From: Chrysomallon squamiferum
Taxonomy: Eukaryota > Mollusca > Gastropoda > Neomphalida > Peltospiridae
DNA: 64,000 nt
Assembly (NCBI GenBank): GCA_012295275.1
Contig: CM022679.1
Span: forward strand, 31,598,447-31,662,446
Reading direction: 5' to 3'
Position numbers and translations under genes: made by a program. Shown here one piece after another: positions 8,601-54,342 of the stretch (positions within the stretch are counted from its first letter, which is position 1; each line of letters starts with the position of its first letter). The notes below the pieces were generated by a model. The model made no database searches, was not told where the DNA came from, and worked only from the letters and a program-made list of their open reading frames with translations.

Positions 8601-11600
8601 TAGTTATCTGTTTACCTTATGACTAGGGTTAAAGTTAGTATTATGGATTTAGATTTATTTATCTGTTTTATTATGACTAAGGGTTAAAGTTAGTATTATG
8701 TTTTAGATTTAGTTATCTTTTTACCTTATTGATTAGGGTTAAGTTAGTTAGTATTATGGTTAGATTTAGTTATCTGTTTACCTTATGACTAGGGTTAAAG
8801 TTAGTATTATGGTTAGATTTAGTTATCTGTTTACCTTATCACTAGGGTTAAAGTTAGTATTATGGTTAGATTTAGTTATCTGTTTACCTTTTGACTAGGG
8901 TTAAAGTTAGTATTATGGTTAGATTTAGTTATCTGTTTACCTTATGACTAGGGTTAGGGTTAAAGTTAGTATTTGGATTTAGATTTAGTTATCTGTTTAC
9001 CTTATGACTAGGGTTAAAGTTAGTATTATGGATTTAGTTTTTTTATTTGTTTTATGACTAGGGTTAAAGTTAGTATTATGGTTAGATTTAGTTATCTGTT
9101 TACCTTTGACTAGGGTTAAAGTTAGTTATTATGTTTAGTTATTTAGTTATATTTGTTTTACCTTATTACTAGGGTTAAATTTAGTATTATGGTTAGATTT
9201 AGTTATCTGTTTACCTTATGACTAGGGTTAAAGTTATTATTATGGTTAGATTTAGTTATCTGTTTACCTTATGCTAGGGTTAAAGTTATTATTATGGTTA
9301 GATTTAGTTATCTGTTTTTACCTTTAGGGTTAGGTTTAAAGTTAGTATTATGGTTTATTTAGTTATCTAGTTAGGGTTAAAGTTAGTATTATGGTTAGAT
9401 TTAGTTATCTGTTTACCTTATGACTAGGGTTAAAGTTAGTATTATGGTTAGATTTAGTTATCTGTTTACCTTATGACTAGGGTTAAAGTTAGTATTATGG
9501 TTAGATTAGTTTTAGTTATCTTTTACCTTACTAGGTTAAGGGTTAAATTTAGTATTATGGTTAGATTTAGTTATCTGTTTACCTTATGACTATGGGTTAA
9601 AGTTTATTATTATGATTTAGATTTAGTTATCTTTTTTATTATGAGGGTTAGGGTTAAAGTTAGTATTATTATGATTTATTTTAGTTTTTGTTTACCTTAT
9701 TTTAGGGTTAAATTTAGTATTATGGTTAGATTTTAGTTATCTGTTTTACCTTATGACTAGGGTTAAAGTTAGTTATTATTATGGTTTAGATTTTTAGTTA
9801 TCTGTTTACCTTATTACTAGGGTTAAATTTAGTATTATGGTTAGTTTTATTTATTTTTTTACTTTTATAAAGTTAGGGTTAAAGTTTTATTATTATTATT
9901 TATTTAGTTATTTGTTTACCTTATGTTAGGGTTAAAGTTAGTATTATGGTTAGATTTAGTTATCTGTTTTACCTTATGACTAGGGTTAAAGTTAGTATTA
10001 TGGTTAGATTTAGTTATCTGTTTACCTTATTTATATTAGGGTTAGGGTAGTATTATGGTTATTATTATGGATTTAGATTTAGTTATCTGTTTTACCTTAT
10101 TATGGTTAGGGTTAAAGTTATTATTATGGATTTTATTTAGTTTATTGTTTACCTTTATGTTAGGGTTAAAGTTAGTATTATGGTTAGATTTAGTTTATCT
10201 GTTTACCTTATTACTAGGGTTAAAGTTAGTATTATGGTTAGATTTAGTTATCTGTTTTTATTATGGTTAGGGTTAAAGTTTTATTATGGTTATTTTTTAC
10301 CTTATGGTTAGGGTTAAAGTTAGTATTATGGATTTAGATTTAGTTTATTTGTTTTTTTTTTATGACTAGGGTTAAAGTTAGTATTATGGTTAGATTTAGT
10401 TATCTGTTTACCTTATGACTAGGGTTAAATTTTATTATTATGGTTAGATTTAGTTATTTGTTTACCTTATTATTTAGGGTTTAAAGTTAGGGTTAAAGTT
10501 AGTATTTATGGTTAGATTTAGTTATCTGTTTTTTTATGACTAGGGGTAAAGTTTATTATTATTATGGTTAGATTTTAGTTTGTTTTTGTTTATTAAATTA
10601 CCTTATGGTTTAGGGTTAAATTAGGTTTAGTATTATGGTTAGATTTAGTTTATCTTGTTTACCTTATGACTAGGGTTAAAGTTATTATTTATTAGATTTT
10701 TCTGTTTACCTTATTTTAGGGTTAAAGTTATTATTATGGTTAGATTTTTTATTGTTTACCTTATGACTAGGTTAGTTAGTATTGGTTAGATTTAGTTATC
10801 TGTTTTACCTTATTATTAGGGTTAAAGTTAGTATTATGGTTAGATTTAGTTATCTGTTTACCTTATGACTAGGGTTAAAGTTAATTATTATGGTTAGATT
10901 TAGTTATCTGTTTACCTTATGACTAGGGTTAAAGTTAGTATTATGGTTAGATTTAGTTATCTGTTTACCTTATGACTAGTGTTAAAGTTAGTATTATGGT
11001 TAGATTTAGTTATCTGTTTACCTTATGTTTAGGGTTAAAGTTATTATTATGATTTAGATTTAGTTATCTTTTTACCTTATGACTAGGGTTAAAGTTAGTA
11101 TTATTATTATTTAGTTATTTAGTTATCTGTTTTATGACTAGGGTTAAAGTTAGTATTATTAGATTTAGTTTATTTATTTATCTATTTTTATTATATTAGG
11201 GTTATTAGTTATTATATTATGTTTATTTAGTTTATCTGTTTTATTTTTTATGGTTAGGGTTAAAGTTAGTATTATGGTTAGTTTTATTTTATCTTTTACC
11301 TTATTATTACTAGGGTTAAAGTTATTATTATTATTTAGATTTTTATTTATCTGTTTACTTTATGACTAGGGTTAAAGTTAGTATTATGGTTAGATTTTTA
11401 TTTATCTTTTACCTTATTTACTAGGGTTAAAGTTAGTATTATATTTAGATTTTTTATCTATTTTACCTTATTAGGGTTAGGGTTAATTATTTTTATTATG
11501 GTTAGATTTGTTTATCTTTTACCTTATTTTAGGGTTAAAAATTTATTTATTATGGATTTAGATTTAGTTATCTGTTTTTTATTTTATGAGTTAGGTTAAA

Positions 11601-14600
11601 TTTATTATTATTTTAGATTTAGTTATCTGTTTACCCTTATTACTAGGGTTAAATTTAGTATTATTTAGTTATTTAGTTATCTTTTTACCTTATGACTAGG
11701 GTTAAAGTAGTATTATTATTATATTTTAGATTTAGTTATCTGTTTTACCTTATGACTAGGGGGTAAATTTAGGGTTATTTAGTTATCTGTTTTTTATTTT
11801 AGGTTTTATTTTATTTATTAGTTTTACCTTATGTATTAGGGTTAAAGTTTAGTATTATGGTTAGATTTATTTATCTGTTTACCTTATGACTAGGGTTAAA
11901 GTTAGTATTATGGTTAGATTTATTTATCTGTTTACCTTATGACTAGGGTTAAAGTTAGTATTATGGTTAGATTTAGTTATCTGTTTACCTTATGACTAGG
12001 GTTAAAGTTAGTATTATGGTTAGATTTAGTTATCTGTTTACCTTTATAGGGTTAAAGTTAGTATTATTATTTAGTTATCTGTTTACCTTATTACTAGGGT
12101 TAAAGTTAGTATTATGGTTAGATTTAGTTATCTGTTTTACCTTTGACTAGGGTTAAAGTTAGTATTATGATTTTTATTGTTTTTATTTATTATTTTATTT
12201 AGTTATCTGTTTTATGACTAGGGTTAAAGTTAGTATTATGGTTAGATTTAGTTATCTGTTTACCTTATGACTAGGGTTAAAGTTAGTATTATGGTTAGAT
12301 TTAGTTATCTGTTTACCTTATGACTAGGGTTAAAGTTAGTATTATGGTTAGATTTAGTTATCTGTTTACCTTATGACTAGGGTTAAAGTTAGTATTATGG
12401 TTAGATTTAGTTATCTGTTTACCTTATTATGACTAGGGTTAATTTTAGTATTTTGTTTTAGATTTAGTTATCTGTTTTATTATTACTAGGTTAAAGTTTA
12501 TTATGGTTAGATTTATTATCTGTTTAGTTTTAGGGTTTAGTTTTATTTAGATTTTTACCTTTTATGACTAGGGTTAAAGTTTTATTATGGTTAGATTTTA
12601 GTTTATCTTTTACCTTATTACTAGGGTTAAAGTTATTATTATTAGATTTAGTTTTCTGTTTACCTTATGACTAGGGTTAAAGTTAGTATTATGATTTTAG
12701 ATTTATTTTTGTTTTTGTTAGGGTTATGTTATTAGGGTTAATTTAGTTATCTGTTATTATGGTTAGATTTAGTTATCTTTTTATCTGTTTATGACTAGGG
12801 TTAAAGTTAATTATGGTTAGATTTTAGATTTTTGTTTATCTTTTTAGGGTTAAAGTTAGATTATGGTTAGTTAAAGTTAGTATTTATTATTTAGATTTAG
12901 TTATCTGTTTTACCTTATGTTTAGGGTTAAATTTAGTATTTTTTTTTTTAGTTATCTTTTTACCTTATGACTAGGGTTAGTTATTTTAGTATTTTGGATT
13001 TAGATTTAGTTATCTGTTTACTAGGGTTTATGGTTAGGGTTAATTATGTTATTTATTATTTTTTAGATTTAGTTATCTGTTTTAGTTAGTATTATGGTTA
13101 GATTTAGTGTTTATTTAGTTATTATGGTTATTTGGTTTATTTGTTTTTACCTTATTACTAGGGTTAAAGTTAGTATTATGGTTAGATTTAGTTATCTGTT
13201 TACCTTATGACTAGGGTTAAAGTTAGTATTATGGTTAGATTTAGTTATCTGTTTACCTTATGACTAGGGTTAAAGTTAGTATTATGGTTAGATTTAGTTA
13301 TCTGTTTACCTTATGACTAGGGTTAAAGTTAGTATTATGGTTATATTTATTTATTTGTTTACCTTATGACTAGGGTTAAAGTTAGTATTATGGTTAGATT
13401 TAGTTATTTGTTTTACCTTATGACTAGGTTAAAAGTATTTTAGTTTTGGTTAGATTTATCTGTTTACCTTATGATTAGGGTTAAAGTTAGTATTATGGTT
13501 AGATTTAGTTATCTGTTTACCTTATTACTAGGTTTAAGTTTATTATTATGATTTTTATTTTTTTTTTTTATCTAGGGTTTACCTTATGGTTATGGTTATT
13601 TAGTTTATCTGTTTACCTTATTTGGTTTTTAGTATTATTTAGATTTATTTTATCTGTTTCTGTTTTATTACTAGGTTTTATTTTATTATGTTTTAGATTT
13701 AGTTATCTGTTTACTTTATGATTTAGGGTTAAAGTTTTTAGTATTATGGTTAGATTTAGTTATCTGTTTACCTTATGACTAGGGTTAAAGTTAGTATTAT
13801 GGTTAGATTTAGTTATCTGTTTACCTTATGACTAGGGTTAAAGTTAGTATTATGGTTAGATTTAGTTATCTGTTTACCTTATGACTAGGGTTAAAGTTAG
13901 TATTATGGTTAGATTTATTTTTGTTATTTTACCTTATGACTAGGGTTATGAGTTAGGGTTAATTTTATTATTATGTTTTAGATTTAGTTATCTTTTACCT
14001 TTTACCTTATGACTAGGGTTAAAGTTAGTATTATGGATTTAGATTGTTTATCTGTTTACTTTTATTAGGGTTAAAGTTAGTATTATGGTTATTTAGTTAT
14101 CTGTTTACTTTATGACTAGGTTAAAGTTAGTATTATGGTTAGATTTAGTTATTGTTTTTACCTTATGACTAGGGTTAAAGTTAGTATTATGGTTAGATTT
14201 AGTTATCTGTTTACCTTTTTATGACTAGGGTTAAAAGTTATTATTATGGTTTTATTTGTTTCTTTTACCTTATGACTAGGGTTAAAGTTAGTTATTATGG
14301 TTAGATTTAGTTATCTTTTTACCTTATGACTAGGGTTAAAGTTAGTATTATGGTTAGATTTAGTTATCTGTTTTTTTATTATGACTAGGGTTAAAGTTAG
14401 TATTATGGTTAGATTTAGTTATCTGTTTACCTTATGACTAGGGTTAAAGTTAGTATTATATTTAGATTAGTTTATCTTTTTTATGACTAGGGTTAAAGTT
14501 AGTATTATGGTTATGATTTAGTTATTTAGTTATCTGTTTTACCTTATGGTTAAAGGGTTAAAAGTTAGTATTATGGTTAGATTTTTTTTCTTTTTACCTT

Positions 14601-17600
14601 ATGAGTTAGGGTTAAAGTTATTATTATGGTTAGATTTAGTTATCTGTTTTATTATTATTAAAGTTAGGGTTAAGATTTTAGTGTTTATTTATTTATTGTT
14701 TTAGTATTTAGATTTTAGTTTTTGTTTACCTTATGACTAGGGTTAAAGTTATTATTATGTTTTAGATTTAGTTTATCTGTTTACCTTATGACTAGGGTTA
14801 AAGTTTTTATGGTTAAAGTTATTTTTATATGTTAGGTTAATTTTTAGTTATTTGTTTTATTTAGTTATCTGTTTAGGGTTAAAGTTTATTATGGTTAGAT
14901 TTAGTTATTTGTTTACCTTATGACTAGGGTTAAAGTTAGTATTATGGATTTAGATTTAGTTATCTGTTTTACCTTATGACTAGGGTTAAAGTTAGTATTA
15001 TGGTTAGATTTAGTTATCTGTTTACCTTATGACTAGGGTTAAAGTTAGATTATTTTAGATTTAGTTTATCTACCTTTTACCTTATGTTAAAGGGTTAAAG
15101 TTAGTATTATGGTTAGATTTAGTTATCTTTTTTACTTTTATGACTAGGGTTAAAAGTTAGTATTATTATTTAGATTTAGTTATCTGTTTACCTTATGACT
15201 AGGGTTAAAGTTAGTATTATGGTTAGATTTAGTTATCTGTTTACCTTATGACTAGGGTTAAAGTTAGTATTATGGTTAGATTTAGTTATCTGTTTTACCT
15301 TTATTTAGGGTTAAAGTTATTTATTATTGGTTAGATTTAGTTATCTTTTACTTTTATGATTAGGGTTAAAGTTATTATTATGGTTAGATTTTATTTATCT
15401 GTTTTTTACCTTATTTTAGGGTTGTTTATTTATTTGGATTTAGATTTAGTTATCTGTTTACCTTATGAGTTAGGGTTAAAGTTTATTATGGTTAGATTTA
15501 GTTTATTGTTTTACCTTTTATGACTAGGGTTTAAAGTTAGTATTATGGTTAGATTTAGTTATCTGTTTACCTTATGACTAGGGTTAAAGTTAGTATTATG
15601 GTTAGTTTTTAGTTTATTTGTTTTTTATTTTAGGGTTAAAGTTATATTACTAGGGTTAATCTGTTTAGTATTTATTTAGATTTAGTTTATTTGTTTACCT
15701 TATGACTAGGGTTAAATTTAGTTATTATATTAGATTTAGATTTTAGTTATCTGTTTACTTTTATGACTAGGGTTAAATTTAGTATTATGGATTTAGATTT
15801 AGTTATCTGTTTTACCTTATGACTAGGGTTAAAGTTATTATTTTGGATTTAGTTATTTTATTTTCTGTTTTTTTATGACTAGGGTTTAGTATTATGGTTA
15901 GATTTAGTTTTACCTTTTATTGTTTTATTATGTTATTTTTATGGTAGTTATTTAGTTTTATCTTTTTTATTTTACTAGGGTTAAAGTTGTTATTATTTGG
16001 TTAGATTTATTTATCTGTTTTAGTTTATTACTAGGGTTAAATTTATTTATTATGGATTTAGATTTATTTATCTGTTTGTTTACCTTATGACTAGGGTTAA
16101 AGTTTAGTATTATGATTTAGATTTAGTTATCTGTTTACCTTATGACTAGGGTTAAAGTTAGTAATTGGTTATGATTTAGTTATTTGTTTATTTGTTTTTA
16201 CCTTATGACTAGGGTTAAAGTTAGTATTTGGTTAGATTTATTTATTTGTTTACCTTATGACTAGGGTTAAAGTTAGTATTATGGTTAGATTTAGTTATCT
16301 GTTTATTATTATGGTTAATTTAGTTTATCTGTTTAGTTATGACTAGGGTTAATTTTATTATTATGTATTATTTAGATTTAGTTATCTTTTTACCTTATTA
16401 CTAGGGTTAAAGTTAGTATTATGGTTAGATTTTTTTATCTGTTTTACCTTATGACTAGGGTTAAAGTTAGTATTATGGTTGGTTAGATTTAGTTATCTGT
16501 TTTACCTTATTACTAGGGTTAAATTTATTATTATGGTTTTATTTAGTTTTATCTTTTTACCTTATGACTAGGGTTAAAGTTAGTATTATTTAGATTTAGA
16601 TTTTTTTTATATCTTTTACCTTATGACTAGGGTTAAAGTTAGTATTATGGTTAGATTTAGTTATCTGTTTTACCTTATGACTAGGGTTAAAAGTTAGTAT
16701 TATGGTTAGATTTTTAGTTATTTACCTTTTACCTTATGACTAGGGTTAAAGTTATTATTATGGTTAGATTTAGTTATCTGTTTTACCTTTTGGTTAGGGT
16801 TAAATTTAGTTATCTGTTTTTGTTGTTATTATGTTTAGGGTTAAAGTTAGTATTATGGTTAGATTTAGTTATCTGTTTACTTTTATGGGTTAGGGTTAAA
16901 GTTAGTATTATGGTTAGATTTAGTTATCTGTTTACCTTATTAGGGTTAAAGTTAGTATTATGGTTAGATTTAGTTATCTGTTTACCTTAGTTTTAGGGTT
17001 AAAGTTATTATTATGGTTTTATTTATTTTATTTTATTACTAGGGTTTTTAGTATTATTTAGATTTGGTTTATCTTTTACCTTATGGTTAGGGTTAAAGTT
17101 TTATTATGGTTAGATTTTAGTTATCTTTTTTACCCTTATGAGTTAGGGTTAAAGTTAGTATTATGGTTAGATTTAGTTATCTGTTTACCTTATGACTAGG
17201 GTTAAAGTTAGTATTATGGTTAGATTTAGTTATCTGTTTACCTTATGACTAGGGTTAAAGTTAGTATTATGGTTAGATTTAGTTATCTTTTTTACCTTAT
17301 GACTAGGGTTAAAGTTTAGTTATTAAATTTTTAGTATTATTTTTAGATTTAGTTATTTATCTGTTTACCTTATGACTAGGGTTAAAGTTTATATTTTATT
17401 TAGATTTAGTTGTTTTTTTTCTTTTTTATTAGTTAGGGTTAAATTTAGTTTTATTTAGATTCTGTTTCTATGACTAGGGTTTATGGTTATTAGGGTTAGT
17501 TATCTGTTTATTATTATTATTTAGATTTAGTTATCTTTTAGTTATTTTATGACTAGGGTTAAAGTTATTATTTGGTTAGATTTAGTTATCTGTTTACCTT

Positions 17601-20600
17601 ATGACTAGGGTTAAAGTTTTATTATGGTTTTATTTTTATCTGTTTACCTTTATGACTAGGGTTAAAGTTATTATTATTTGGTTAGATTTAGTTATCTTTT
17701 TTACCTTATGACTAGGGTTAAAGTTAGTATTATGGATTTAGATTTAGTTATCTGTTTACCTTATGACTAGGGTTAAAGTTATTATTATGGTTAGATTTAG
17801 TTATCTTTTTACCTTATGACTAGGGTTAAAGTTAGTATTATGGTTAGATTTAGATTTAGTTTTATCTGTTTTACTATTAGTTAGGGTTAGTAGTTAGTAT
17901 TTTAGATTTATTTATTATTGTTTACCTTATGACTACTATTTAAAGTTAGTATTATGGTTAGATTTAGTTATCTGTTTACTTATGACTAGGGTTAAAGTTA
18001 GTTTAGTATTATGGTTAGATTTAGTTTTCTGTTTTACCTTATGACTAGGGTTAAAGTTAGTATTATGGTTTTAGATTTAGTTTATCTGTTTTACCTTATT
18101 TTAGGGTTAAAGTTAGTATTTATGGTTAGATTTGTTTATCTTTTTACCTTATGACTAGGGTTAAAGTTAGTATTATGGTTAGATTTAGTTATCTGTTTTA
18201 CCTTATGACTTTAGGGTTAAAGTTTAGTATTATGATTTAGATTTAGTTATCTGTTTGTTTACCTTATTAGGTTAAAGTTAGTATTATGGATTTAGATTTA
18301 TTTCTGTTATTATGACTAGGGTTAAAGTTTATTTATGGTTAGATTTTTATCTGTTTACCTTATGACTAGGGTTAAAGTTAGTATTATTATGGTTAGATTT
18401 AGTTATCTGTTTCCCTTATGACTAGGGTTAAAGTTAGTATTATGGATTTAGATTTAGTTTATCTTTTTTTACTAGGGTTAAAGTTAGTATTATGGTTAGT
18501 TATTTAGTTTATCTGTTTTACCTTATGACTAGGGTTAAAGTTATTATTATTTTAGATTAGTTTATCTGTTTACCTTATGACTAGGGTTAAAGTTAGTATT
18601 ATTATGGATTTAGATTTAGTTATCTGTTTTTACCTTATGACTAGGGTTAAGTTTATTATTATGGTTAGATTTAGTTATCTTTTTACCTTATGACTAGGGT
18701 TAAAGTTAGTATTAGTTATTTAGATTTATTTATCTGTTTACCTTATGACTAAAGGTTAAAGTTAGTATTATGGTTAGATTTTTAGTTATTGTTTTTTACT
18801 TTATGACTAGGGTTAAAGTTTATTATGGTTAGATTTAGTTATCTGTTTTATTTATGATTAGGGTTTAAGTTTATTTATTTTATTTAGTTATCTGTTTACC
18901 TTATTATTAGGGTTAAAGTTATATTTTATTTTTATTCTGTTTCTGTTTTATGACTAGGGTTAAAGTTAGTATTATGGTTTTTTATTTATTTATTTTTATT
19001 TTACTAGGGTTTAGTATTATGGTTAGATTTAGTTATCTTTTTTTAGTATTAAAGTTTATATTTAGATTATGGTTATTGTTTACCTTATGATTTAGGGTTA
19101 AAGTTAGTATTATGGTTAGATTTAGTTATCTATTTTACTTATGTTAGGGTTAAAGTTAGTATTATGGTTAGATTTAGTTATCTGTTTTTACCTTATGACT
19201 AGGGTTAAAGTTAGTATTATGGATTTAGATTTATTTATCTGTTTTTACCTTATGACTAGGGTTTAAAGTTAGTTATTATGGTTAGATTTAGTTATCTGTT
19301 TTACCTTATGACTAGGGTTAAAGTTAGTATTATGGTTAGATTTAGATTTAGTTATCTGTTTTACCTTATGACTAGGGTTAAAGTTTAGTATTATGGTTAG
19401 ATTTAGTTATCTGTTTTTACCCTTATGACTAGGGTTAAAGTTTATTATTATGGTTAGATTTAGTTATCTTTTTACCTTATGACTAGGGTTAAAGTTAGTA
19501 TTATGGTTAGATTTAGTTATCTGTTTACCTTATGACTAGGGTTAAAGTTAAATTTAGTATTATGGTTAGATTTAGTTATCTGTTTACTTATTATGTTAGG
19601 GTTTAAAATTATGGTTAGTATTAGATTTAGATTTGTTTATCTTTTTACCTTTTGTTTAGGGTTAAATTAGTTAGTTATTTTGGTTAGATTTAGTTATCTG
19701 TTTTTTACCTTATGAGTTAGGGTTTAAAGTTAGTATTATGGTTAGATTTAGTTATCTCTGTTTACCTTATGACTAGGGTTAAAGTTAGTATTATGGTTAG
19801 ATTTTTAGTTATCTGTTTTTACCTTATGACTAGGGTTAAAGTTATTATTATGGTTAGATTTAGTTATCTGTTTTTTATGACTAGGGTTTATATTATGGTT
19901 TTATTTATTTATTGTTTACCTTTTTTTATTATGGTTAGATTTAGTTATCTGTTTTACCTTATGACTAGGGTTAAAGTTAGTATTATGGTTAGATTTATTT
20001 TATCTGTTTTACCTTATGACTAGGGTTAAAGTTAGTATTATGGTTAGATTTAGTTATCTGTTTTTTACTAGGGGTAAAGTTAGGGTTAAAGTTAGTATTA
20101 TGGTTAGATTTTTAGTTATCTGTTTACCTTTATCTGTTTTAGGGTTAAAGTTATTATTATATTTAGATTTTAGTTTTATCTGTTTTACCTTATGACTAGG
20201 GTTAAAGTTAGTTATTATGGTTTAGATTTAGTTATTTGTTTACCCTTATATGGTTAGGGTTAAAGTTAGTATTATGGTTAGATTTAGTTATCTGTTTACC
20301 TTATGACTAGGGTTAAAGTTATTATTATGGTTAGATTTAGTTATCTGTTTACCTTTTATGACTAGGGTTAAAAGTTAGTATTATGGTTAGATTTAGTTAT
20401 CTGTTTACCTTATGACTAGGGTTAAAGTTAGTATTATGGTTAGATTTACTTATTTATTTGGTTATTTTTATTTATTAGATTTTTTACCTTATGACTAGGG
20501 TTAAAGTTAGTATTATGGTTAGATTTAGTTATCTGTTTACCTTATGACTAGGGTTAAAGTTAGTATTATGGTTAGATTTAGTTTATCTTTTTACCTTATG

Positions 20601-22463
20601 ACTAGGGTTAAAGTTAGTATTATAGATTTAGATTTAGTTATCTGTTTTTACCTTATGACTAGGGTTTAAAGTTAGTATTATGGTTAGATTTAGTTATCTG
20701 TTTTACCTTATGACTAGGGTTAAAGTTAGTATTATTATGGTTAGATTTAGTTATCTGTTTACCTTATGACTAGGGTTAAAGTTAGTATTATGGTTAGATT
20801 TAGTTTGTTTATTTATTAGGGTTTAGTATTATGGTTTAGATTTTTTATCTTATTATTAGGGTTAACTTAGGGTTTAGTATTATGGTTAGATTTAGTTATC
20901 TGTTTACCTTATGACTAGGGTTAAAGTTAGTATTATGGTTAGATTTAGTTATCTGTTTTACCTTATGACTAGGGTTAAAGTTAGTATTATGGTTAGATTT
21001 AGTTATATCTTTTTACCTTATGACTAGGGTTAAAGTTAGTATTATGGATTTAGATTTAGTTATCTGTTTACCTTATGACTAGGGTTAAAGTTAGTATTAT
21101 GGTTAGATTTAGTTATCTGTTTACCTTATGACTAGGGTTAAAGTTAGTATTATGGTTAGATTTAGTTATCTGTTTTTACCTTATGACTAGGGTTAAAGTT
21201 AGTATTATTTAGATTTTTTATCTTTTTTATCTGTTTACCTTATACTAGGGTTAAAGTTTATTATGGTTAGATTTAGTTTCTGTTTTACCTTATGACTAGG
21301 GTTAAAGTTAGTATTATGGTTAGATTTAGTTATCTTTTTATGACTTATTACTAGGGTTAAATTTAGTTATTATGGTTAGATTTAGATTTAGTTATCTATT
21401 TTTACTGTTTTATGACTAGGGTTAAAAGTTAGTATTATGGTTAGATTTAGTTATCTGTTTTACCTTATGACTAGGGTTAAAGTTTAGTATTATGGTTAGA
21501 TTTAGTTATCTGTTTACCTTATGACTAGGGTTAAAGTTAGTATTATGGTTAGATTTAGTTATCTGTTTACCTTATGACTAGGGTTAAAGTTAGTATTATG
21601 GTTAGATTTAGTTATCTGTTTACCTTATGACTAGGGTTAAAGTTAGTATTATTATATGATTTAGATTTTTAGTTATCTGTTTACCTTATGACTAGGGTTA
21701 AAGTTATTATTATGGATTTAGATTTTTATCTGTTTACCTTATGACTAGGGTTAAAGTTAGTATTATGGATTTAGATTTTAGTTATCTGTTTACCTTATGA
21801 CTAGGGTTAAAGTTAGTATTATATTTAGATTTAGTTATCTTTTTTTTACCTTATGACTAGGGTTAGGGTTAAAGTTAGTATTATGGTTAGATTTAGTTAT
21901 CTGTTTTTACCTTATGACTAGGGTTAAAAGTTATTATTATGGATTTAGATTTAGTTATCTGTTTACCTTATGACTAGGGGGTTAAAGTTGGTTATTATGG
22001 TTAGATTTAGTTATCTGTTTACCTTATGACTAGGGTTAAAGTTAGTATTATGGTTAGATTTAGTTATCTGTTTACCTTATGACTAGGGTTAAAGTTAGTA
22101 TTATGGTTAGATTTAGTTATCTGTTTACCTTATGACTAGGGTTAAAGTTAGTATTATGGTTAGATTTAGTTATCTGTTTACCTTATGACTAGGGTTAAAG
22201 TTAGTATTATGGTTAGATTTAGTTATCTGTTTACCTTATGACTAGGGTTAAAGTTAGTATTATGGTTAGATTTAGTTATCTGTTTACCTTATGACTAGGG
22301 TTAAAGTTAGTATTATGGCTAGATTTAGTTATCTGTTTACCTTATGACTAGGGTTAAAGTTAGTATTATGGTTAGATTTAGTTATCTGTTTACCTTATGA
22401 CTAGCGTTAAAGTTAGTATTATGGTTAGATTTAGTTATCTGTTTACCTTATCACTAGCTTGTG
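2615..22463. repeat. 53-bp satellite array, left segment
   Basis: Continuous head-to-tail tandem array. Successive TATGACTAGGG landmarks at 2651 and 2704 give the 53-bp period. The unit, in order, contains TTAGTATTATGG, TTAGATTTAGTTATC, TGTTTACCTTATGAC and TAGGGTTAAAG. The consensus has T 24, A 14, G 11 and C 4 on the plus strand. All units face the same way, and I saw no inversion. The segment equals about 375 unit lengths. Near-perfect stretches (2615-3300, about 8100-8940, 22010-22450) alternate with scrambled ones containing T and A expansions, lost GTT/ACC parts and partial units. The array contains no gene. Its function is unknown; centromeric, pericentromeric or subtelomeric satellite are all possible. 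Confidence 0.97.
12480..13140. repeat. Scrambled sub-region of the 53-bp satellite
   Basis: Unit boundaries are mostly lost here, although fragments such as TTAGATTTAGTTATC and AGGGTTAAAG persist. Similar stretches occur near 10500-10800, 14640-14900, 15600-16060, 17320-17560 and 18860-19070. They are bordered by almost perfect units, so the change is patchy rather than a gradient. Confidence 0.75.
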
Positions 22464-22663
22464 NNNNNNNNNNNNNNNNNNNNNNNNNNNNNNNNNNNNN
22501 NNNNNNNNNNNNNNNNNNNNNNNNNNNNNNNNNNNNNNNNNNNNNNNNNNNNNNNNNNNNNNNNNNNNNNNNNNNNNNNNNNNNNNNNNNNNNNNNNNNN
22601 NNNNNNNNNNNNNNNNNNNNNNNNNNNNNNNNNNNNNNNNNNNNNNNNNNNNNNNNNNNNNNN
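22464..22663. other. Assembly gap 2 (200 N) inside the satellite
   Basis: Exactly 200 N. Satellite lies on the left side, apart from the last six bases, CTTGTG, which do not fit the unit. Foreign adapter-like sequence lies on the right side. Confidence 0.95.
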
Positions 22664-22694
22664 TTGGTATACTTCAGTTCAGTTACGTATTGCT
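22664..22694 (+). other. Oxford Nanopore ligation adapter remnant (contaminant)
   Basis: The sequence right of gap 2 does not belong to the satellite. It contains GTTCAGTTACGTATTGCT, the 3' part of the standard Oxford Nanopore ligation adapter top strand. It is preceded by TACTTCA, where the adapter as I know it has TACTTC. After a few more bases (AGTTATGGTTTTT) the 53-bp satellite resumes. The match of 18 consecutive bases plus the near-match before it, at a contig edge, makes chance very unlikely. It is a technical artefact, not biology. Confidence 0.93.
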
Positions 22695-25329
22695 AGTTAT
22701 GGTTTTTACCTTATGACTAGGGTTAAAGTTAGTATTATGGCTAGATTTAGTTATCTGTTTACCTTATGACTAGGGTTAAAGTTAGTATTATGGTTAGATT
22801 TAGTTATCTGTTTACCTTATGACTAGGGTTAAAGTTAGTATTATGGCTAGATTTAGTTATCTGTTTACCTTTGACTAGGGTTAAAGTTAGTATTATGGCT
22901 AGATTTAGTTATCTGTTTACCTTATGACTAGGGTTAAAGTTAGTATTATGGTTAGATTTAGTTATCTGTTTACCTTATGACTAGGGTTAAAGTTAGTATT
23001 ATGGTTAGATTTAGTTATCTGTTTACCTTATGACTAGGGTTAAAGTTAGTATTATGGCTAGATTTAGTTATCTGTTTACCTTTTGACTAGGGTTAAAGTT
23101 AGTTATGGTTAGATTTAGTTATCTGTTTTTTATTTTGACTAGGGTTAAAGTTAGTTATTATGGTTAGATTTAGTTATCTGTTTTACCTTTTTTACTAGGG
23201 TTAAAGTTAGTTATTATGGTTAGATTTAGTTATCTGTTTACCTTATGACTAGGGTTAAAGTTAGTATTATGGTTAGATTTAGTTATCTGTTTACCTTATG
23301 ACTAGGGTTAAAGTTAGTATTATGGCTAGATTTAGTTATCTGTTTACCTTATGACTAGGGTTAAAGTTAGTATTATGGTTAGATTTAGTTATCTGTTTAC
23401 CTTATGACTAGGGTTAAAGTTATGGTTATTTAGTTATTATGTTTATGGTTACTAGATTTAAAGTTAGTTATGGCTGATTTAGTTTTATTTTTTATGACTA
23501 GGTTAAAAGTTTAGTATTATGGTTAGATTTAGTTATCTGTTTACCTTATTTACTAGGGTTAAAGTTAGTATTATGGTTAGATTTATTTATTTATTTTTTT
23601 TTTATTACTAGGGTTAAAGTTAGTATTATGGTTAGATTTAGTTATTTGTTTACCTTTTGACTAGGGTTAAAGTTAGTATTATGGTTAGATTTAGTTATCT
23701 GTTTACCTTATGACTAGGGTTAAAGTTAGTATTATGGTTAGATTTAGTTATCTGTTTACCTTATGACTAGGGTTAAAGTTAGTATTATGGTTAGATTTAG
23801 TTATTTTATTTTTTTTTAGGGTTAAAGTTAGTATTATTATGGTTAGATTTAGTTATCTGTTTTACCTATGACTAGGGTTAAAGTTTATTATGGTTAGATT
23901 TAGTTATCTGTTTACCTTATGACTTAGGGTTAAAGTTAGTTATTATGGTTAGATTTAGTTTGTTTATTTTATTATTATTACTTAGGGTTAAAGTTTAAAG
24001 TTATTTATTTATGGTAGGGTTAGGGTTAAAGTTAGTTATTTTTTTAGTTATTTATTTTTACTATTACTAGGGTTTTAAAGTTAGTATTATGGTTTTACCT
24101 TATGATTTAGTTATCTGTTTACCTTATTAGTTATACTTTACCTTATGTTAAAAAAGTTAGTATTATTTAGATTTAGTTATCTGTTTACCTTATGACTAGG
24201 GTTAAAGTTAGTATTATGGTTAGATTTAGTTATCTGTTTACCTTATGACTAGGGTTAAAGTTAGTATTATGGTTAGATTTAGTTATCTGTTTACCTTTTG
24301 ACTAGGGTTAAAGTTAGTATTATGGTTAGATTTAGTTATCTGTTTACCTTATGACTAGGGTTAAAGTTAGTATTATGGTTAGATTTAGTTATCTGTTTAC
24401 CTTATGACTAGGTTAAAGTTAGTATTATGGTTAGATTTATTTATTTGTTTACCTTATGACTAGGGTTAAAGTTTTATGGTTATTTATTATCTGTTTTTTA
24501 CCTTATGACTAGGGTTAAAGTATTATTATGGTTATGGTTTAGTTATTTATTTTATCTTATTTACTAGGGTTAAAGTTAGTATTATGGTTAGATTTAGTTA
24601 TTTGTTTTTTTTACTTTTAAACTTAGGGTTAAATATATTATGGTTTATCTGTTTACCTTATGACTAGGGTTAAAGTTAGTATTATGGTTAGATTTAGTTA
24701 TCTGTTTACCTTATGACTAGGGTTAAAGTTAGTATTATGGTTAGATTTAGTTATCTGTTTACCTTATTACTAGGGTTAAAGTTAGTATTATGGTTAGATT
24801 TAGTTATCTGTTTACCTTATGACTAGGGTTAAAGTTAGTATTATGGTTAGATTTAGTTATCTGTTTACCTTATGACTAGGGTTAAAGTTAGTATTATGGT
24901 TAGATTTAGTTATCTGTTTACCTTTTATAGGGTTAAAGTTAGTTTATGGTATAGGTTATTTAGTTTATGTTTTTTCTTATGACTAGTTTAAAGTTATTTA
25001 TGGTTAGGTTAGTTTTTTTGTTTACCTTATTATAGGTTAAAAGTTAGTATTATGGTTTAGTTAGATTTAGTTATTTGTTTTACTTTATGGTTAGGGTTAA
25101 ATCTTTTACCTTTATTAGGGTTAGATTTAGTTATTTTTTTATCTTACCTTTATTACTAGGGTTAGGTTTAAGTATATATTATGGTTAGATTTAGTTATCT
25201 GTTTACCTTATGACTAGGTTAAAGTTAAAGTATTATGGTTAGATTTAGTTATCTTTTTTACCTTATGACTAGGGTTAAAGTTAGTATTATGGTTATGGTT
25301 AGTTATCTTTTTATTACCTTATGACTAGG

Positions 25330-25500
25330 TTAAAGTTATGGTTAGGGTTTAGTTATTTTTTTTATATTTTTTACTAGGGTTTAAGTTAGTATTATTATAG
25401 TATTTAGTTATTATTATTTATTTTATTTATTATTATTAAAAGTAGTTTAAAATTATGATTTAGATTTAGTTATGGTTATTATTTTTTTATTACTTATGTT
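25330..25500. repeat. Heavily scrambled satellite block
   Basis: Almost no complete unit is present and the text is TTATT/TTAGTT-like. Comparable blocks are at about 26690-27000, 28400-29080, 30860-31290, 31640-32400, 34750-35150, 37790-38030, 41500-41800 and 42600-42860. Confidence 0.7.
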
Positions 25501-28500
25501 AAAGTTAGTTTTATGGTTAGATTTAGTTATTTTTTTTTACCTTATTTATTAGGGTTTAAGTTAGTATTATGGTTAGATTTAGTTTATTTTTTTAGTTATC
25601 TTTTACTAGGGTTAAAGTTAAAGTTATTATTATGGTTAGATTTAGTTATCTGTTTTTTAGTTTTTTGTTAGGGTTAAAGTTAGTATTATTAAAGTTAGAT
25701 TTATAGATTTATTTAGTTATTTACCCTTATGACTAGGGTTAAAGTTAGTATTATGGTTAGATTTAGTTATCTTTTTTTACCTTATGACTAGGGTTAAAGT
25801 TAGTATTATGGTTAGATTTAGTTATTTGTTTATTTTATGACTAGGGTTAAAGTTAAAGTATTATGGTTATGGTTAGTTATTTTATTTATTTTTTATTACT
25901 ATGGGTTAAAGTTAGTATTATGGTTAGATTTAGTTATCTGTTTACCTTTGATTAGGGTTAAAGTTAAAGTTATTATTATTTAGATTTAGTTATCTGTTTT
26001 TTTTTTTAGGGTTAAAGTTAGTTTATGGTTTAGATTTAGTTATATTTTATTTTTTACTAGGGTTAAAGTTAGTTTTATGGTTAGATTTTAGTTATTTGTT
26101 TACCTTATGACTTAGGGTTAAAGTTAGTATTATGGTTAGATTTAGTTATCTGTTTACCTTGACTAGGGTTAAAGTTAGTATTATGGTTAGATTTAGTTAT
26201 CTATTATAGGGTTAAAGTTAGTATTATGGTTAGATTTAGTTATCTGTTTACCTTATTACTAGGGTTAAAGTTAGTATTATGGTTAGATTTTATAGATTTA
26301 GTTATCTGTTTACCTTATGAGGGTTAAAAGTTAAAAGTTATGGTTAGATTTAGTTATCTGTTTACCTTTTACTTAGGGTTAAAAGTTAGTATTATGGTTA
26401 GATTTAGTTATCTGTTTTTATGACTAGGGTTAAAGTTAGTTATTATGGTTAGATTTAGTTATCTTTTTATAGGGTTAAAGTTTATGGTTAGATTTATTAT
26501 CTGTTTAACTAGGGTTAAAGTTAGTTATTATGGTTAGATTTAGTTATCTGTTTATCTTTTTTACTAGGGTTAAAAAGTTAGTATTATGGTTAGATTTAGT
26601 TATCTGTTTTATACCTTTTTTACTAGGGTTAAAGTTAGTATTATGGTTAGATTTAGTTATTTGTTTACCTTTTACCTTCTAGGGTTAAAGTTAGTATTAT
26701 TATATTATATTTAGTTATTTAGTTTATTTATTTTTTACTTATAGTTTAAAGTTAGTTTTATTATTAGATTTTAGTTATTTATTTTTATTTTTATTTATTA
26801 TCTGTTTAAAGTTAGTAGGGTTAAATTAGATTTTAGTTATTTAGTTATTACCTTATGACTAGGGTTAAAGTTAGTATTATGGGTTAGATTTAGTTATCTG
26901 TTTACCTTATGACTAGGGTTTTTAGTATTATTAAAGATTTAGTTAAAGTTAGTTTTATAGTTATTTTTAGTTTTTATCTATTTAGTTATGTTTAAAGTTT
27001 ATTATGGTTAGGGTTAAAGTTAGTATTATGGTTAGATTTAGTTATTTGTTTTTAGTTATCTGTTTATTACTAGGGTTAAAAGTTAGTATTATGGTTAGAT
27101 TTAGTTATTTGTTTTTACCTTTGACTAGGGTTAAAAGTTAGTATTATGGTTAGATTTAGTTATCTTTTTACCTTATTTACTAGGGTTAAAAGTTAAAGTT
27201 ATTATTAGATTTAGTTATCTGTTTTACCTTTTATTTATGGTTAAAGTTAGTATTATTATGGTTAGATTTAGTTATCTGTTTTTACCTTATGACTACCTTA
27301 TTAAAGTTAGTATTATATTATGGTATTTAGTTTTTGTTTATCTTTTACTAGGGTTAAAGTTTAGTATTATGGTTAGATTTAGTTATTTAGTTATTTGTTT
27401 ACCTTATGACTAGGGTTAAAGTTAGTATTATGGTTAGATTTAGTTATCTGTTTACCTTATGACTAGGGTTAAAGTTAGTATTATGGTTAGATTTAGTTAT
27501 CTGTTTACCTTATTTACTAGGGTTAAAGTTAGTATTATGGTTAGATTTAGTTATTTTTTACCTTATTATATTAGGGTTAAAGTTAGTATTATTATGTTAG
27601 ATTTAGTTATTAGTTACCTTTTACTAGGGTTAAAGTTAGTATTATGGTTATTAGTTTATTTTAGTTTACCTTTTTTAGGGTTAAAGTTAGTATTATAGTT
27701 ATATTTAGTTATATGTTTATCTTTTACTTAGGGTTAAAGTTAGTTAATTATGGTTAGGGTTAGTTATTTATTTTTTTTACCTTATTTACTAGGGTTTTAA
27801 AGTTAGTATTATGGTTAGATTTAGTTATTATAGTTATCTTTTTACTAGGGTTAAAGTTAAAGTTATTAATATATGTTATTTTAGTTTAGTTGTTTTACCT
27901 TATTTGTTTACCTTTAAAGTTAAAGTTATTATTATAGATTTTTATTTATTTAGTTTTACCTTTTACCTTATGACTAGGGTTAAAGTTAGTATTATGGTTA
28001 TTTAGTTATCTGTTTACCTTATGACTAGGGTTAAAGTTAAAGTATTATGGTTAGATTTAGTTTTCTGTTTACCTTTATTTACTAAAGTTAAAGTTAGTTT
28101 TTATTTATTTTTATTTTTTAGGGTTTAAAGTTAGTATTATGGTTAGATTTAGTTATTAGTTTTTTAGTTATTTACTAGGGTTAAAGTTAGTATTATTATG
28201 TTAGATTTAGTTATCTGTTTTACCTTATGACTAGGGTTAAAGTTAGTATTATGGTTAGATTTAGTTATCTGTTTTACCTTATTACTAGGGTTAAAGTTAG
28301 TATTATTATTTAGATTTAGTTATTTGTTTACCTTATTATGACTAGGGTTAAAGTTAGTATTATGGTTAGATTTAGTTATCTAGTTTTACCTTTATTAGGG
28401 TTAGGGTTAAAAAGTTAGTTTTATTAAAAGTAGATTTAGTTATCTATTTTTAGTTTATGGCTATATTTATTAAAGTTAGTTATTATAAAGTTATTTAGTT

Positions 28501-31500
28501 ATTTAGATTTAGTTATTTTATTTTTACCTTATTAAAGTTAAAGTTAGTATATGGTTAGATTTAGTTATCTGTTTTTTACTTATTTGACAGGGTTAAAGTT
28601 AGTATTATGGTTAGATTTTTATTATCTTTTACCTTTTGACTAGGGTTAAAGTTAGTATTATGGTTTAGATTTAGTTTTATCTATTTATTATTACTTATTT
28701 AAAGTTAGTTATTTAGTTTAGGGTTATTTATTAGTTATTTTAAAGTTTTTTTTAGTTATTTGTTTAGGGTTATTTAGTTAGTATTATGGTTTAAATTTAG
28801 TTATAGATTTAGTTTATTTAGTTTTTTATTTTAGGGACTAAAGTTAAAAGTTTATATATAGATTTAGTTATCTTTTTTATTTTTTATTTAGGGTTAAAGT
28901 TAAATTATTATGGTTAGATTTAGTTATTTATTTAGTTATTTTACTTAGGGTTTAAAGTTAAAGTAGTATTATTAGATTTAGTTATTATGTTTTATTTTTT
29001 ACTGTTTTTTAAAGTTAGTATTATATAAAGGGGTTAGTTATTTATGTTTAGATTTATTACTTTTTTTATTTTAAGTTACTAGGTTAAAGTTTAGTATTAT
29101 GGGTTAGATTTTTAGTTATCTGTTTACCTTATGACTAGGGTTAAAGTTAAAGTATTATGGTTAGATTTAGTTATCTTAGTTTACCTTTGACTTATTTAAA
29201 AGTTAAAGTTATTATTATTAGATTTAGTTTTTATGTTTTACCTTATTACTAGGGTTTAAAGTTAGTATTATGGTTAGTTTAGTTATCTATTTATTTTTAC
29301 TAGTTAGTTAAAGTTAGTTATTATGGTTAGATTTAGTTATTATTTTTTTTTATGATTTAGGGTTAAAGTTAGTATTATGGTTTATTGTTTATTTTTTTTT
29401 AGGGTTAAAAGTTAGTATTATGGTTAGATTTAGTTATCTTAGTTATTTTGACTAGGTTAAAAGTTAGTTATTATTAGTTTTAGTTAGTTTTATTTTATTT
29501 ATTTACCTATGGGTTAAAGGTTTTAAATTATATTATTATTATAGTTATTGTTTTTATTTTTATTACTAGGGTTAAAAGTTAAAGTTATTATAGGTTAGTT
29601 AGTATTATTTTAGATTTTTTTTTCTGTTTACCTTATGACTAGGGTTAAGTTAGTATTATGGTTAGATTTAGTTATCTGTTTACCTTTGACTACTAGGGTT
29701 AAAGTTAGTATTATGGTTAGATTTAGTTATCTGTTTTACCTTATTTAGGGTTAAAGTTAGTTATCTGTTATGGTTATTATTTAGTTATTATTATGTTTTT
29801 TTATTTATATGTTTACCTTATGACTAGGGTTAAAGTTAGTATTATTATTATGGTTAGTTTTATTTATTTATTACCTTATTACTTAGGGTTAAAGTTAGTA
29901 TTTTATTATTATTTAGATTTAGTTATTTTATTTATCTGTTTATGACTATTAGGGTTTAAAAGTTAGTATTATGGTTAGATTTAGTTATATCTTTACCTTT
30001 TTATGACTAGGGTTAAAGTTAGTATTATGGTTAGATTTAGTTATTTTTTACTTTTACCTTATGATTAGGGTTAAAGTTAGTATTAGTTGGGCTAGATTTA
30101 TTTATTTTTTTTACCTTATGACTAGGGTTTAAGTTAGTATTATGGTTAGATTTAGTTTATTTGTTTACCTTTTTACTTATGTTAAAAAAGTTAGTATATA
30201 TATGGTTAGATTTAGTTATCTGTTTACCTTATGACTAGGGTTAAAGTTAGTATTATGGTTAGATTTAGTTATTGTTTTTTTATGATAGGGTTAAAGTTAG
30301 TATTATGGTTATTATTAGTTAGGGTTAGTTTATTTATTTTTAGTTATCTATTTACTTACTGTTAAAGTTTAGTATTATGGTTAGATTTAGTTATTTGTTT
30401 ACCTTATGACTAGGGTTAAAGTTAGTTATTATGGTTAGATTTAGTTATCTGTTTATTTTATGACTTAAAGTTAGTTATTATGGTTAGATTTAGTTATTTT
30501 GTTTTAGATTTATTTTAGGGTTAAAGTTAGTTATTATGGTTAGATTTAGTTATCTGTTTTTACCTTATGACTAGGGTTAAAGTTAGTATTATTTAGATTT
30601 AGATTTAGTTATTTTTTTACCTTACTAGGGTTAAAGTTAGTATTATGGTTAGATTTAGTTATATTTAGTTTCTTACCTTACTTAGGGACTAAAAGTTAGT
30701 ATTATGGTTATGGTTAGTTATCTTTTTGTTTATGACTAGGGACTAAAGTTAAAGTTAGTATTATGGGTTAGATTTAGTTATCTGTTTACCTTATGACTAG
30801 GGTTAAAGTTAAAGTTATGGTTAGATTTAGTTATTTGTTTACCTTTATACTAGGGTTAAAGTTAAAGTTATTATTATTTAGATTTAGTTATTAGTTATTT
30901 ATTTACTTTAAAGTTAGTTTTATGGTTAGATTTAGTTATTGTTTTATTTATATTAGGGTTTTAGTTATTTATTTATTATTTTACCTTTTTAGTTTAAAGT
31001 TTTAGTATTATGGTTATTATATCTTTATTACCTTTTTTATAGATTAGTTTAAATTATATATATTTTATTTATTTGTTATATTTTTTTTAGGGTTAAAGTT
31101 AAATTATGGTTAGATTTAGTTATTTTTTATTATTATTACTAGGGTTTAAAGTTAGTTATTATTTATGTTAGATTTAGTTATTTAGATTTTAGTTTTATTA
31201 TTTATGGTTAAAGTTAGTATTATGGTTAGATTTTAGTTATATTTTTTTATTTATCTTTTACCTAGTTTTAAAGTTAGTAAAGTTAAAGTTATGATTTAGA
31301 TTTTAGTTATCTGTTTACCTTATGACTAGGGTTAAAGTTAGTATTATGGTTAGATTTAGTTATCTGTTTACCTTATGACTAGGGTTAAAGTTAGTATTAT
31401 GGTTAGATTTAGTTATCTGTTTACCTTATGACTAGGGTTAAAGTTAGTATTATGGTTAGATTTAGTTTCTGTTTACCTTATGACTAGGGTTAAAGTTAGT

Positions 31501-34500
31501 ATTATGGTTAGATTTAGTTATCTATTTATCTTATTTACTTAGGGTTAAAGTTAAGTATTATATGTTAGATTTAGTTATCTGTTTTTATTTATCTTTTTAG
31601 GGTTAAAGTTAGTAAAGTATTATGGTTAGATTTAGTTATCTTTTTACCTTATTACTAGGGTTAAAGTTAGTTTATAGTTAGTTTAGTTATTGTTTATTTT
31701 TTTACTAGGGTTAAAGTTAGTATTATTATGGTTAAATTTAGTTATTATTTTTTAGTTTTATTATTACCTTATTTAGGTTAAAAGTTTAGTTATTATGGGT
31801 TAAAGTTAGTATTTTGGTTATTTATTTATCTTTTACCTTTTACTTTATGACTAAAGTTAAAGTTAGTAAGGTTAGATTTTATTATCTGTTTTTACTTATG
31901 ACTAGGGTAGATTTAGTATTATTATGTTTAGTTATTGTTTATTATACTAGTTTAAAGTTAGTTAGTATTAGTTAGATTTAGTTATCTGTTTTTTACCTTA
32001 TGACTAGGGTTAAAGTTAGTATTATGGTTAGATTTATTTATTTATTTAGGGTTAAAGTTAGTATTATTAAAATTTAGTTAATTTATATTATTATTTAGGG
32101 TTAAAGTTTAGTTATATTTTTTTATTTTTTATTTTACTTACCTTATTTAGGGTTAAAGTTAGTTATATTTAGATTTAGTTATTTTTTATTTATTTATTAC
32201 TAGGGTTAAAAGTTAGTATTATGGTTAGATTTAGTTATTTATTTACCTTTATTTTTACTAGGGTTTAAAAAGTTAGTATTATGGTTAGATTTAGTTTTAT
32301 TTGTTTTTACCTTATTACTAGGGTTAAAAGTTAGTTATTATTTACCTATTATAGGGTAGTTTAGTATGTTTATATTTAGTTTGTTTTATTTACCCTTGAA
32401 AGGGGTTAAAGTATTATTATGGTTAGATTTAGTTATCTGTTTACCTTATGACTAGGGTTAAAGTTAGTATTATGGTTAGATTTAGTTATCTGTTTACCTT
32501 ATTATTTAGGGTTAAAGTTAGTATTATATAGATTTAGTTATTTATTTTATTTTTTTACTAGGGTTAAAAAGTTAGTTTATTATGGTTAGATTTAGTTTTA
32601 TTTTTACCTTATTACTTAGGGTTAAAAGTTAGTATTATGGTTAGATTTAGTTATCTGTTTTTCTTTTTTACTAGGGTTAAAGTTAGTATTATTATTTTTA
32701 GATTTAGTTTAGTTGTTTTTTTATTTTACTAGGGTTTAAAGTTAGTTTATGGTTAGATTTAGTTATCTGTTTACCTTTTGACTAGGGTTAAAGGGTTAGT
32801 TATTATGGTTAGATTTAGTTATCTGTTTACCTTTATGACTAGGGTTTAAAAAGTAGTATTATGGTTATAGTTTAGTTATATCTTTATATGTTTACTTAGG
32901 GTTAAAAGTTAGTATTATGGTTAGATTTTATTATATCTTTTACCTTTTTACCTTACTAAAAGTTAAAGTTAGTATTATGGTGGATTTAGATTTAGTTATC
33001 TGTTTACCTTATGACTAGGGTTAAAGTTAGTATTATGGTTAGATTTAGTTTATTATGTTTTTACCTTATGACTAGGGTTAAAGTTAGTATTATTATGGTT
33101 AGATTTAGTTATCTGTTTACCTTTTTAGGGTTAAAGTTAGTATTATGGTTATTTTATTTATCTATTTATCTTTATGGGTTAAAGTTAGTATGGTTAGATT
33201 TTTATTATCTATTTTACCTTATTACTAGGGTTAAAGTTAGTATTATGGTTAGATTTAGTTATCTGTTTACCTTATTACTAGGGTTAAAGTTAGTATTATG
33301 GTTAGATTTAGTTATCTGTTTACCTTATTACTAGGGTTAAAGTTAGTATTATGGTTAGATTTAGTTATCTGTTTACCTTATGACTAGGGTTAAAGTTAGT
33401 ATTATGGTTAGATTTAGTTATTTGTTTACCTTATGACTAGGGTTAAAGTTAGTATTATGGTTAGATTTAGTTATCTGTTTTTTCTTTTTTTACTTAGGGT
33501 AGGGGTGTTAAAGTTAGTATTATGGTTAGATTTAGTTATCTGTTTACCTTATGACTAGGGTTAAAGTTAGTATTATGGTTAGATTTAGTTATCTGTTTAC
33601 CTTATGACTAGGGTTAAAGTTAGTATTATGGTTAGATTTAGTTATCTGTTTACCTTATGACTAGGGTTAAAGTTAGTATTATGGTTAGATTTAGTTATCT
33701 GTTTTATTTTGACTAGGGTTAAAGTTAGTATTATTATGGTTAGATTATCTTTAGTTACCTTTTGACTAGGACTTAAAGTTTAAAGTTATTATTATGGTTA
33801 GATTTAGTTATCTGTTTTTACCTTTATGACTAGGGTTAAAGTTAGTTATTATGGTTAGATTTAGTTATCTTTTTTACTTATGACTAGGGTTAAAGTTAGT
33901 ATTATGGTTAGATTTTATTTAGTTATTTTGACTAGGGTTAAAAGTTAGTATTATGGTTAGATTTAGTTATTTTTATCTTAACCTTATGACTAGGGTTAAA
34001 GTTAGTTTATGGTTAGATTTAGTTATTTTTATAGTTATTTTATTATCTGTTTAAAGTTAGTAGGGTTAATTAGTATTATGGTTAGATTTAGTTATCTGTT
34101 TACCTTATGACTAGGGTTAAAGTTAGTATTATGGTTAGATTTATTTATCTTTTATCTTTATCTGTAGGGTTAAAATGTTAGTATTATGGTTATTTAAAGT
34201 TAGTTTTTATTTAGTTATCTGTTTACCTTATGACTAGGGTTAAAGTTAGTATTATGGTTAGATTTAGTTATCTGTTTACCTTATGACTAGGGTTAAAGTT
34301 AGTATTATGGTTAGATTTAGTTATTTGTTTACCTTATGACTAGGGTTAAAGTTAGTATTATTAGTAGATTTAGTTATTTGTTTTACCTTTTACTTTATGT
34401 TAAAAGTTAAAGTTTATTATGTTAGATTTAGTTATTATTTTTTTATTTTTATTACTTTTACTTAGGGTTAAAGTTAGTATTATGGTTAGATTTAGTTTAT

Positions 34501-43357: not shown

Positions 43358-43470
43358 TTTAGTTATCTGTTTACCTTATGACTAGCGTTAAAGTTAGTAT
43401 TATGGTTAGATTTAGTTATCTGTTTACCTTATCACTAGGGTTAAAGTTAGTATTATGGCTAGATTTAGTT
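43358..43470. repeat. Satellite units carrying two rare linked variants
   Basis: Consecutive units carry CTAGCGTTAAAG (instead of CTAGGGTTAAAG) and then TTATCACTAG (instead of TTATGACTAG). They are followed by a GGCTAG unit and a TTTTGACTAG unit. The same first two variants occur together at 22377-22457, beside gap 2. The identical stretch is about 81 bp. Confidence 0.85.
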
Positions 43471-43739
43471 ATCTGTTTACCTTTTGACTAGGGTTAAAGT
43501 TAGTATTATGGTTAGATTTAGTTATCTGTTTACCTTTTTACTAGGGTTAAAGTTAGTATTATTATTAGTTATTTAGTTATTTTTTTACCTTATTTAGGGT
43601 TAAAGTTAGTTAGTTTATTATATGGTTAGTTTTATTATTTATTTAGTTTACTGTTTACCTTAAAGTTACTAGGGTTAAAGTTAGTATTATGGTTAGATTT
43701 AGTTATTATGTTTTACCTTTTGACTAGGGTTAAAGTTAA

Positions 43740-51300: not shown

Positions 51301-51500
51301 NNNNNNNNNNNNNNNNNNNNNNNNNNNNNNNNNNNNNNNNNNNNNNNNNNNNNNNNNNNNNNNNNNNNNNNNNNNNNNNNNNNNNNNNNNNNNNNNNNNN
51401 NNNNNNNNNNNNNNNNNNNNNNNNNNNNNNNNNNNNNNNNNNNNNNNNNNNNNNNNNNNNNNNNNNNNNNNNNNNNNNNNNNNNNNNNNNNNNNNNNNNN
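51301..51500. other. Assembly gap 3 (200 N), cutting the vWA exon of copy 1
   Basis: Exactly 200 N. Satellite is on the left. On the right the sequence starts in the middle of coding exon 3 (minus strand) of the first gene copy. The join between satellite and gene is therefore a scaffolding inference and is not shown by sequence. Confidence 0.95.
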
Positions 51501-51788
51501 TTCATTAGCCACCATTTTGATTGCTGCGTCTGTATTAGTACCTGCCCCGTCGTAGTACACGTTATTAATTCCATTGACAACACCGTTGACGGTGCTGTAC
51601 TTTGAAAGGTCGAAGTCTACATACGGGGAACTGCTGAAGCTGACGGTAGCTACTCTGGTGTCGTTGGCGCTGATGTCGAGGCCTCGGACAACGTGAACGA
51701 GAAAGTTTTGAACACGTATAAAGTTGTCCGCACCAATACTGCCCGACGTATCAACAATAAACACTAAATCTAAATTTGTCTTACAAGT
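51501..51788 (-). CDS. vWA-domain exon 3 of copy 1, truncated by gap
   Basis: Minus-strand exon encoding the N-terminal half of a von Willebrand factor A domain, a fold that typically binds extracellular ligands through a metal site (MIDAS). Visible motifs are the MIDAS DTSGS, the following strand TRVATVSFSS, and GAGTNTD with the second metal-binding element. The exon should begin at the acceptor CACACAG/ACT (51788), giving TCKTNLDLVFIVDTSGSIG as its start. The reading frame has no ATG there, which is expected for an internal exon. It stays open for 96 codons to the gap. The third MIDAS element (TDG) is not present because the sequence ends. As far as read, the protein is the same as in copy 2. 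Confidence 0.85.
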
Positions 51789-51797
51789 CTGTGTGGA

Positions 51798-51835
<38 letters not shown>

Positions 51836-51839
51836 CAAG

Positions 51840-51870
<31 letters not shown>

Positions 51871-51897
51871 GATAGATAGATAGAGAGATAGATATAG

Positions 51898-51928
<31 letters not shown>

Positions 51929-51937
51929 GAGAGAGAC

Positions 51938-52289: not shown

Positions 52290-52301
52290 ACAATAATAGT
52301 A

Positions 52302-52390: not shown

Positions 52391-52394
<4 letters not shown>

Positions 52395-53101: not shown

Positions 53102-53132
<31 letters not shown>

Positions 53133-54297: not shown

Positions 54298-54342
<45 letters not shown>

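What the first reader, a model, noticed from the sequence alone, without database searches (positions are those of the whole stretch)
22664..22694. Untrimmed Oxford Nanopore adapter embedded in the assembly
The bases right of gap 2 contain GTTCAGTTACGTATTGCT plus most of the preceding adapter text, flanked by satellite. This is a sequencing adapter, not genomic DNA. It shows that a read end was placed here, probably by gap filling or by a contig ending in the satellite, so the array around it may be misassembled.
Basis: partly seen in the sequence, partly recalled or inferred. Interest (0 to 1): 0.8.

Follow-up and report, generated by a model that had tools for sequence, protein, structure and literature searches.

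The report
Leftover nanopore adapter at contig end
A short piece of man-made Oxford Nanopore sequencing adapter was left on the first bases of a contig made of satellite repeats, next to a scaffold gap, so it is a laboratory leftover and not part of the organism's genome.

Summary
Window 22670-22694 is the Oxford Nanopore ligation-adapter top strand with one extra A; its last 18 bases (22677-22694) are exact. With up to 3 mismatches this is the only match in the window, 0.03 being expected by chance. All 6 papers found to print this 18-mer give it as the nanopore adapter.

It is not embedded in satellite. It lies at the first bases of a contig, 6 bases right of a 200-N gap (22464-22663), with its ligation side facing the satellite, as at a nanopore read start. 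In two public collections the 24-base core occurs 42 times: the leader side is within 15 bases of a gap or stretch end in 23, the insert side in 0, and 19 are internal.

That the array is unreliable is supported indirectly: the 53-bp array (2615-51300) is cleaner near contig ends and scrambled inside, with errors running mostly towards T. Reads were not available and the own-genome search was unanswered six times. An artefact: bases 22664-22694 should be trimmed.

The parts
22464..22663 (.). Scaffold gap of exactly 200 N, left of the adapter
   Evidence: the window's other two gaps (2415-2614, 51301-51500) are also exactly 200 N
22664..22669 (+). First six contig bases (TTGGTA), read as the poorly called leader of the adapter
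   Evidence: the same six letters precede the core in 1 of 42 public matches, L006
22670..22694 (+). Oxford Nanopore ligation-adapter top strand, 24 bases plus one extra A; the last 18 bases (22677-22694) are exact
   Evidence: adapter text printed in papers seen
22695..51300 (+). Satellite of period 53 that follows the adapter with no other bases between; rest of the contig that the adapter begins
2615..22463 (+). The same satellite in the contig left of the gap; no adapter found at either of its edges

Best explanation
It is an untrimmed Oxford Nanopore ligation adapter. A DNA molecule that ended inside a 53-bp satellite array was ligated to the adapter (the adapter's last T pairs with an A-tailed fragment; recalled). 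The read began partway through the adapter leader, was not trimmed, and supplied the first bases of a contig. A scaffolder then placed that contig in the array with a fixed 200-N gap on its left. Shown: the sequence, its orientation, its place at the contig edge, and that no second adapter copy is in the window. Inferred: that a single read supplied the contig edge, that scaffolding was by Hi-C, and that the scrambled array interior comes from nanopore basecalling or consensus failure in repeats.
For: Exact 18-mer, only match in the window at up to 3 mismatches, 0.03 expected. Gapped score 44 against 22-23 for the rest of the window and at most 30 in 60 random sequences. All 6 papers of the library found to print the 18-mer give it as the nanopore adapter. 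Leader side 6 bases from the N run, insert side facing satellite. In public collections the 24-base core has its leader side within 15 bases of a gap or stretch end in 23 of 42 matches and its insert side there in 0 of 42.
Against: One extra A inside the match and a leader (TTGGTA) unlike the printed one. 19 of the 42 public matches are internal, so an edge position is not a rule; of these, L027 has its insert side 39 bases from the end of its stretch. 20 of the 32 genome matches come from one record and the 9 viral stretches bear one sample number, so the controls are few independent cases. No reads of this assembly were seen.
Confidence: 0.98

Rival explanations
1. The adapter was brought in by gap filling: a read end was pasted into a gap and the N run is what remained.
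For: A read end lies beside a gap, which a partial fill would also give.
Against: The N run is exactly 200, like the window's two other gaps, as fixed-size scaffold gaps are; the adapter's leader side touches it, as at an unmodified contig start.
Confidence: 0.07
2. The 25 bases are genuine genomic DNA that resembles the adapter by chance or descent.
For: None found beyond the fact that the sequence is in the assembly.
Against: The rest of the window scores no better than random sequence; 0.03 matches were expected at up to 3 mismatches; the place and orientation at a contig edge are those of a read start. Eukaryotic genomes could not be searched for the 25-mer.
Confidence: 0.005
3. The adapter marks a native chromosome end: the satellite is telomere-like and the read began at a telomere.
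For: The unit holds TAGGGTTA, and TTAGGG occurs 180 times in 2615-51300.
Against: TTAGGGTTAGGG occurs only 3 times there and CCCTAA never. A read that starts at a telomere reads the C-rich strand inward (recalled), whereas this one reads the G-rich strand. Non-satellite DNA lies on both sides of the array in this scaffold, although joined to it only across gaps.
Confidence: 0.005

Closest known systems
Oxford Nanopore ligation (Y) adapter, top strand (as printed in PMC9965538, PMC7490894, PMC7730629 and PMC9848274 with AATG, and in PMC12886913 and PMC12405535 with CCTG, before TACTTCG)
   Same: 24 of 24 bases from TACTTC to the final TTGCT, in order
   Different: One extra A after TACTTC; the bases before TACTTC read TTGGTA, so the AATG and CCTG forms cannot be told apart
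Adapter remnants in a public Hi-C scaffold, NZ_JAAVSH020000001.1 (Lamellibrachia endosymbiont)
   Same: Same core; leader side 3-8 bases from an N run in 14 of its 20 matches
   Different: Gap lengths vary there; here the flank is a satellite and the gaps are all 200 N

Membership tests
Untrimmed Oxford Nanopore ligation adapter | Adapter top-strand sequence, beyond chance | tested here: met
   Exact 18-mer, 24 of 24 bases with one insertion; text from papers
Untrimmed Oxford Nanopore ligation adapter | Orientation of a read start: leader outwards, ligation side against the insert | tested here: met
   Leader side 6 bases from the N run, satellite starts directly after the final T
Untrimmed Oxford Nanopore ligation adapter | Position at a contig edge | tested here: met
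   N run ends at 22663, contig starts at 22664; public matches 23 of 42 within 15 bases of a gap or stretch end on the leader side
Untrimmed Oxford Nanopore ligation adapter | Full leader (AATG or CCTG form) present | tested here: inconclusive
   22664-22669 read TTGGTA; the same letters stand before the core in 1 of 42 public matches
Untrimmed Oxford Nanopore ligation adapter | Raw nanopore reads begin here and reads of other platforms lack the segment | not testable with these tools
   No reads held; the own-genome search did not complete
Telomere (TTAGGG type) | Tandem TTAGGG | tested here: not met
   TTAGGGTTAGGG 3 times in 2615-51300; the repeat unit is 53 bp

The most novel reading that the evidence does not exclude
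The adapter itself leaves no room for novelty. The boldest reading left open nearby is that the scrambled, T-biased interior of the 53-bp array is partly real DNA: a satellite decaying on one strand only (C, G and A going to T on the same strand) through some strand-biased damage or repair.
Probability: 0.03. Interest if true: 0.5.

Novelty: not a real feature. Interest (0 to 1): 0.05.

Why it matters
It matters only for data quality. It shows that nanopore reads went into this assembly, that adapter trimming and screening missed a contig end, and that the letters of the satellite array, its copy number and the order of its contigs should not be used for biology without other reads.

Tried and rejected
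Other adapters (nanopore rapid, PacBio SMRTbell in two forms, Illumina TruSeq stub and Nextera; recalled sequences, ungapped comparison): best distances 20 or more mismatches of 45-50 for the long ones and 6 of 19 for Nextera; the 13-base TruSeq stub reached 2 mismatches at 2069, not followed up. Adapter at the other five contig edges in the window: local scores of 17 or less, so none seen. tRNA genes and Rfam families at gathering score: none. The satellite in viral contigs by one exact 27-base word: 0. Telomere reading: rejected, see rivals. Paper searches on adapter contamination gave 107 papers (15 listed, one of them, PMC9869717, opened for passages) and 187 papers (15 listed, none opened).

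Full report
What is there. Window 22677-22694 is GTTCAGTTACGTATTGCT without a mismatch, the only match in the window on either strand with up to 3 mismatches, against 0.03 expected. Allowing gaps, 22670-22694 matches 24 bases of the adapter with one extra A (score 44; rest of the window 22 and 23 on the two strands; best of 60 random sequences 30). A full-text search of 5.39 million open papers found 6 that print the 18-mer; in the passage seen of each of the 6 it is the nanopore adapter (PMC9965538; PMC7490894; PMC12886913; PMC9848274; PMC12405535; PMC7730629). PMC9965538 reports truncating residual adapter from the termini of its final assembly, the same kind of remnant.

Where it is. The window has three runs of N, each exactly 200. 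The second, 22464-22663, is followed at once by TTGGTA and the adapter. After the adapter's last T, satellite begins at once at 22695. So the adapter is at the first bases of a contig, leader side outwards, insert side inwards, the geometry of a nanopore read start. Gaps of 200 N are reported for an assembly scaffolded with YaHS (PMC12134992, passages seen), which fits Hi-C scaffolding but does not prove it.

Public controls. The 24-base core without the extra A was sought in genome contigs: 32 stretches in 11 records, 20 of them in one record, the Hi-C scaffold of a Lamellibrachia endosymbiont. In viral contigs: 9 stretches with 10 matches, all with one sample number in the name. Of the 42 matches, 23 have the leader side within 15 bases of an N run or of the end of the fetched stretch, 0 have the insert side there, and 19 are internal. 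Of the 23, 16 lie beside N runs and 7 at stretch ends (L003, L005, L019, L020, L025, L031, L038). Among the 19 internal matches, L027 has its insert side 39 bases from a stretch end, the opposite geometry. The six bases before the core in the window, TTGGTA, precede it in 1 of 42 public matches; 4 of 42 continue with AAGGTTAA, by recall the flank of native barcodes. The window does not, which suggests an unbarcoded ligation library.

The array around it. 2615-51300 is one satellite of period 53 in two contigs, tandem-repeat score 21582, 73% matches and 14% indels. In the left contig the fraction of bases in exact consensus 21-mers is 0.93 in the first kb and 0.88 in the last block, and 0.37-0.77 from 4615 to 21614. 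In the right contig it is 0.76 in the first block, 0.80 and 0.78 in the last two, and 0.19-0.66 between. Against the consensus, the inner part of the right contig (23695-49614) shows C>T 0.184 but G>A 0.032, G>T 0.100 but C>A 0.032, A>T 0.033 but T>A 0.007, with 62% of inserted bases T (alignments in so repetitive a stretch are approximate). Mutation without strand bias would make each pair about equal. The repeat variant GGCTAGA makes up 11 of 91 GG[CT]TAGA words within 1.5 kb of contig ends and 3 of 445 inside (Fisher p 5e-7; the 1.5-kb cut was chosen). These patterns suggest basecalling or out-of-register consensus errors inside, and better-called or single-read sequence at the ends. Strand-specific nanopore miscalling is documented for telomeres and telomere-like repeats (PMC9414165, abstract and passages seen); that it acts on this satellite is my inference. 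Another reason for clean ends is that assemblers break where copies are identical. No reads were seen.

Verdict. Contig end is favoured over gap filling. Trim 22664-22694 and treat the array's copy number and letters as unreliable.

Noticed in passing
51501-57037 and 58459-64000: Two same-strand copies, 98.9% identical over 5560 columns, spaced about 6,960 bases within one contig and running to the window's end. A global alignment shows 15 mismatches and 15 gaps, most gaps in simple repeats. Either a recent tandem duplication or a false duplication in the assembly; not decided.
   Followed up: partly
51501-51758 and 58396-59022, minus strand: A von Willebrand factor A domain frame (Pfam PF00092, E 3e-19 and 1.2e-26) in both copies; the contig's first base, 51501, cuts the left one.
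   Followed up: partly
2615-51300: A 53-bp satellite of at least 48 kb whose inner parts depart from the consensus mostly towards T on one strand, while contig ends are cleaner; the GGCTAGA variant is nearly confined to contig ends.
   Followed up: partly
51770-52080 and 58728-59054, also 1-2414: Long runs of simple repeats beside the coding frame. By recall only, this style resembles cephalopod genomes; the organism was not identified.
   Followed up: no
L001-L032: 11 public prokaryote records of species-representative genomes still carry the nanopore adapter core, with 20 stretches in NZ_JAAVSH020000001.1 alone.
   Followed up: partly
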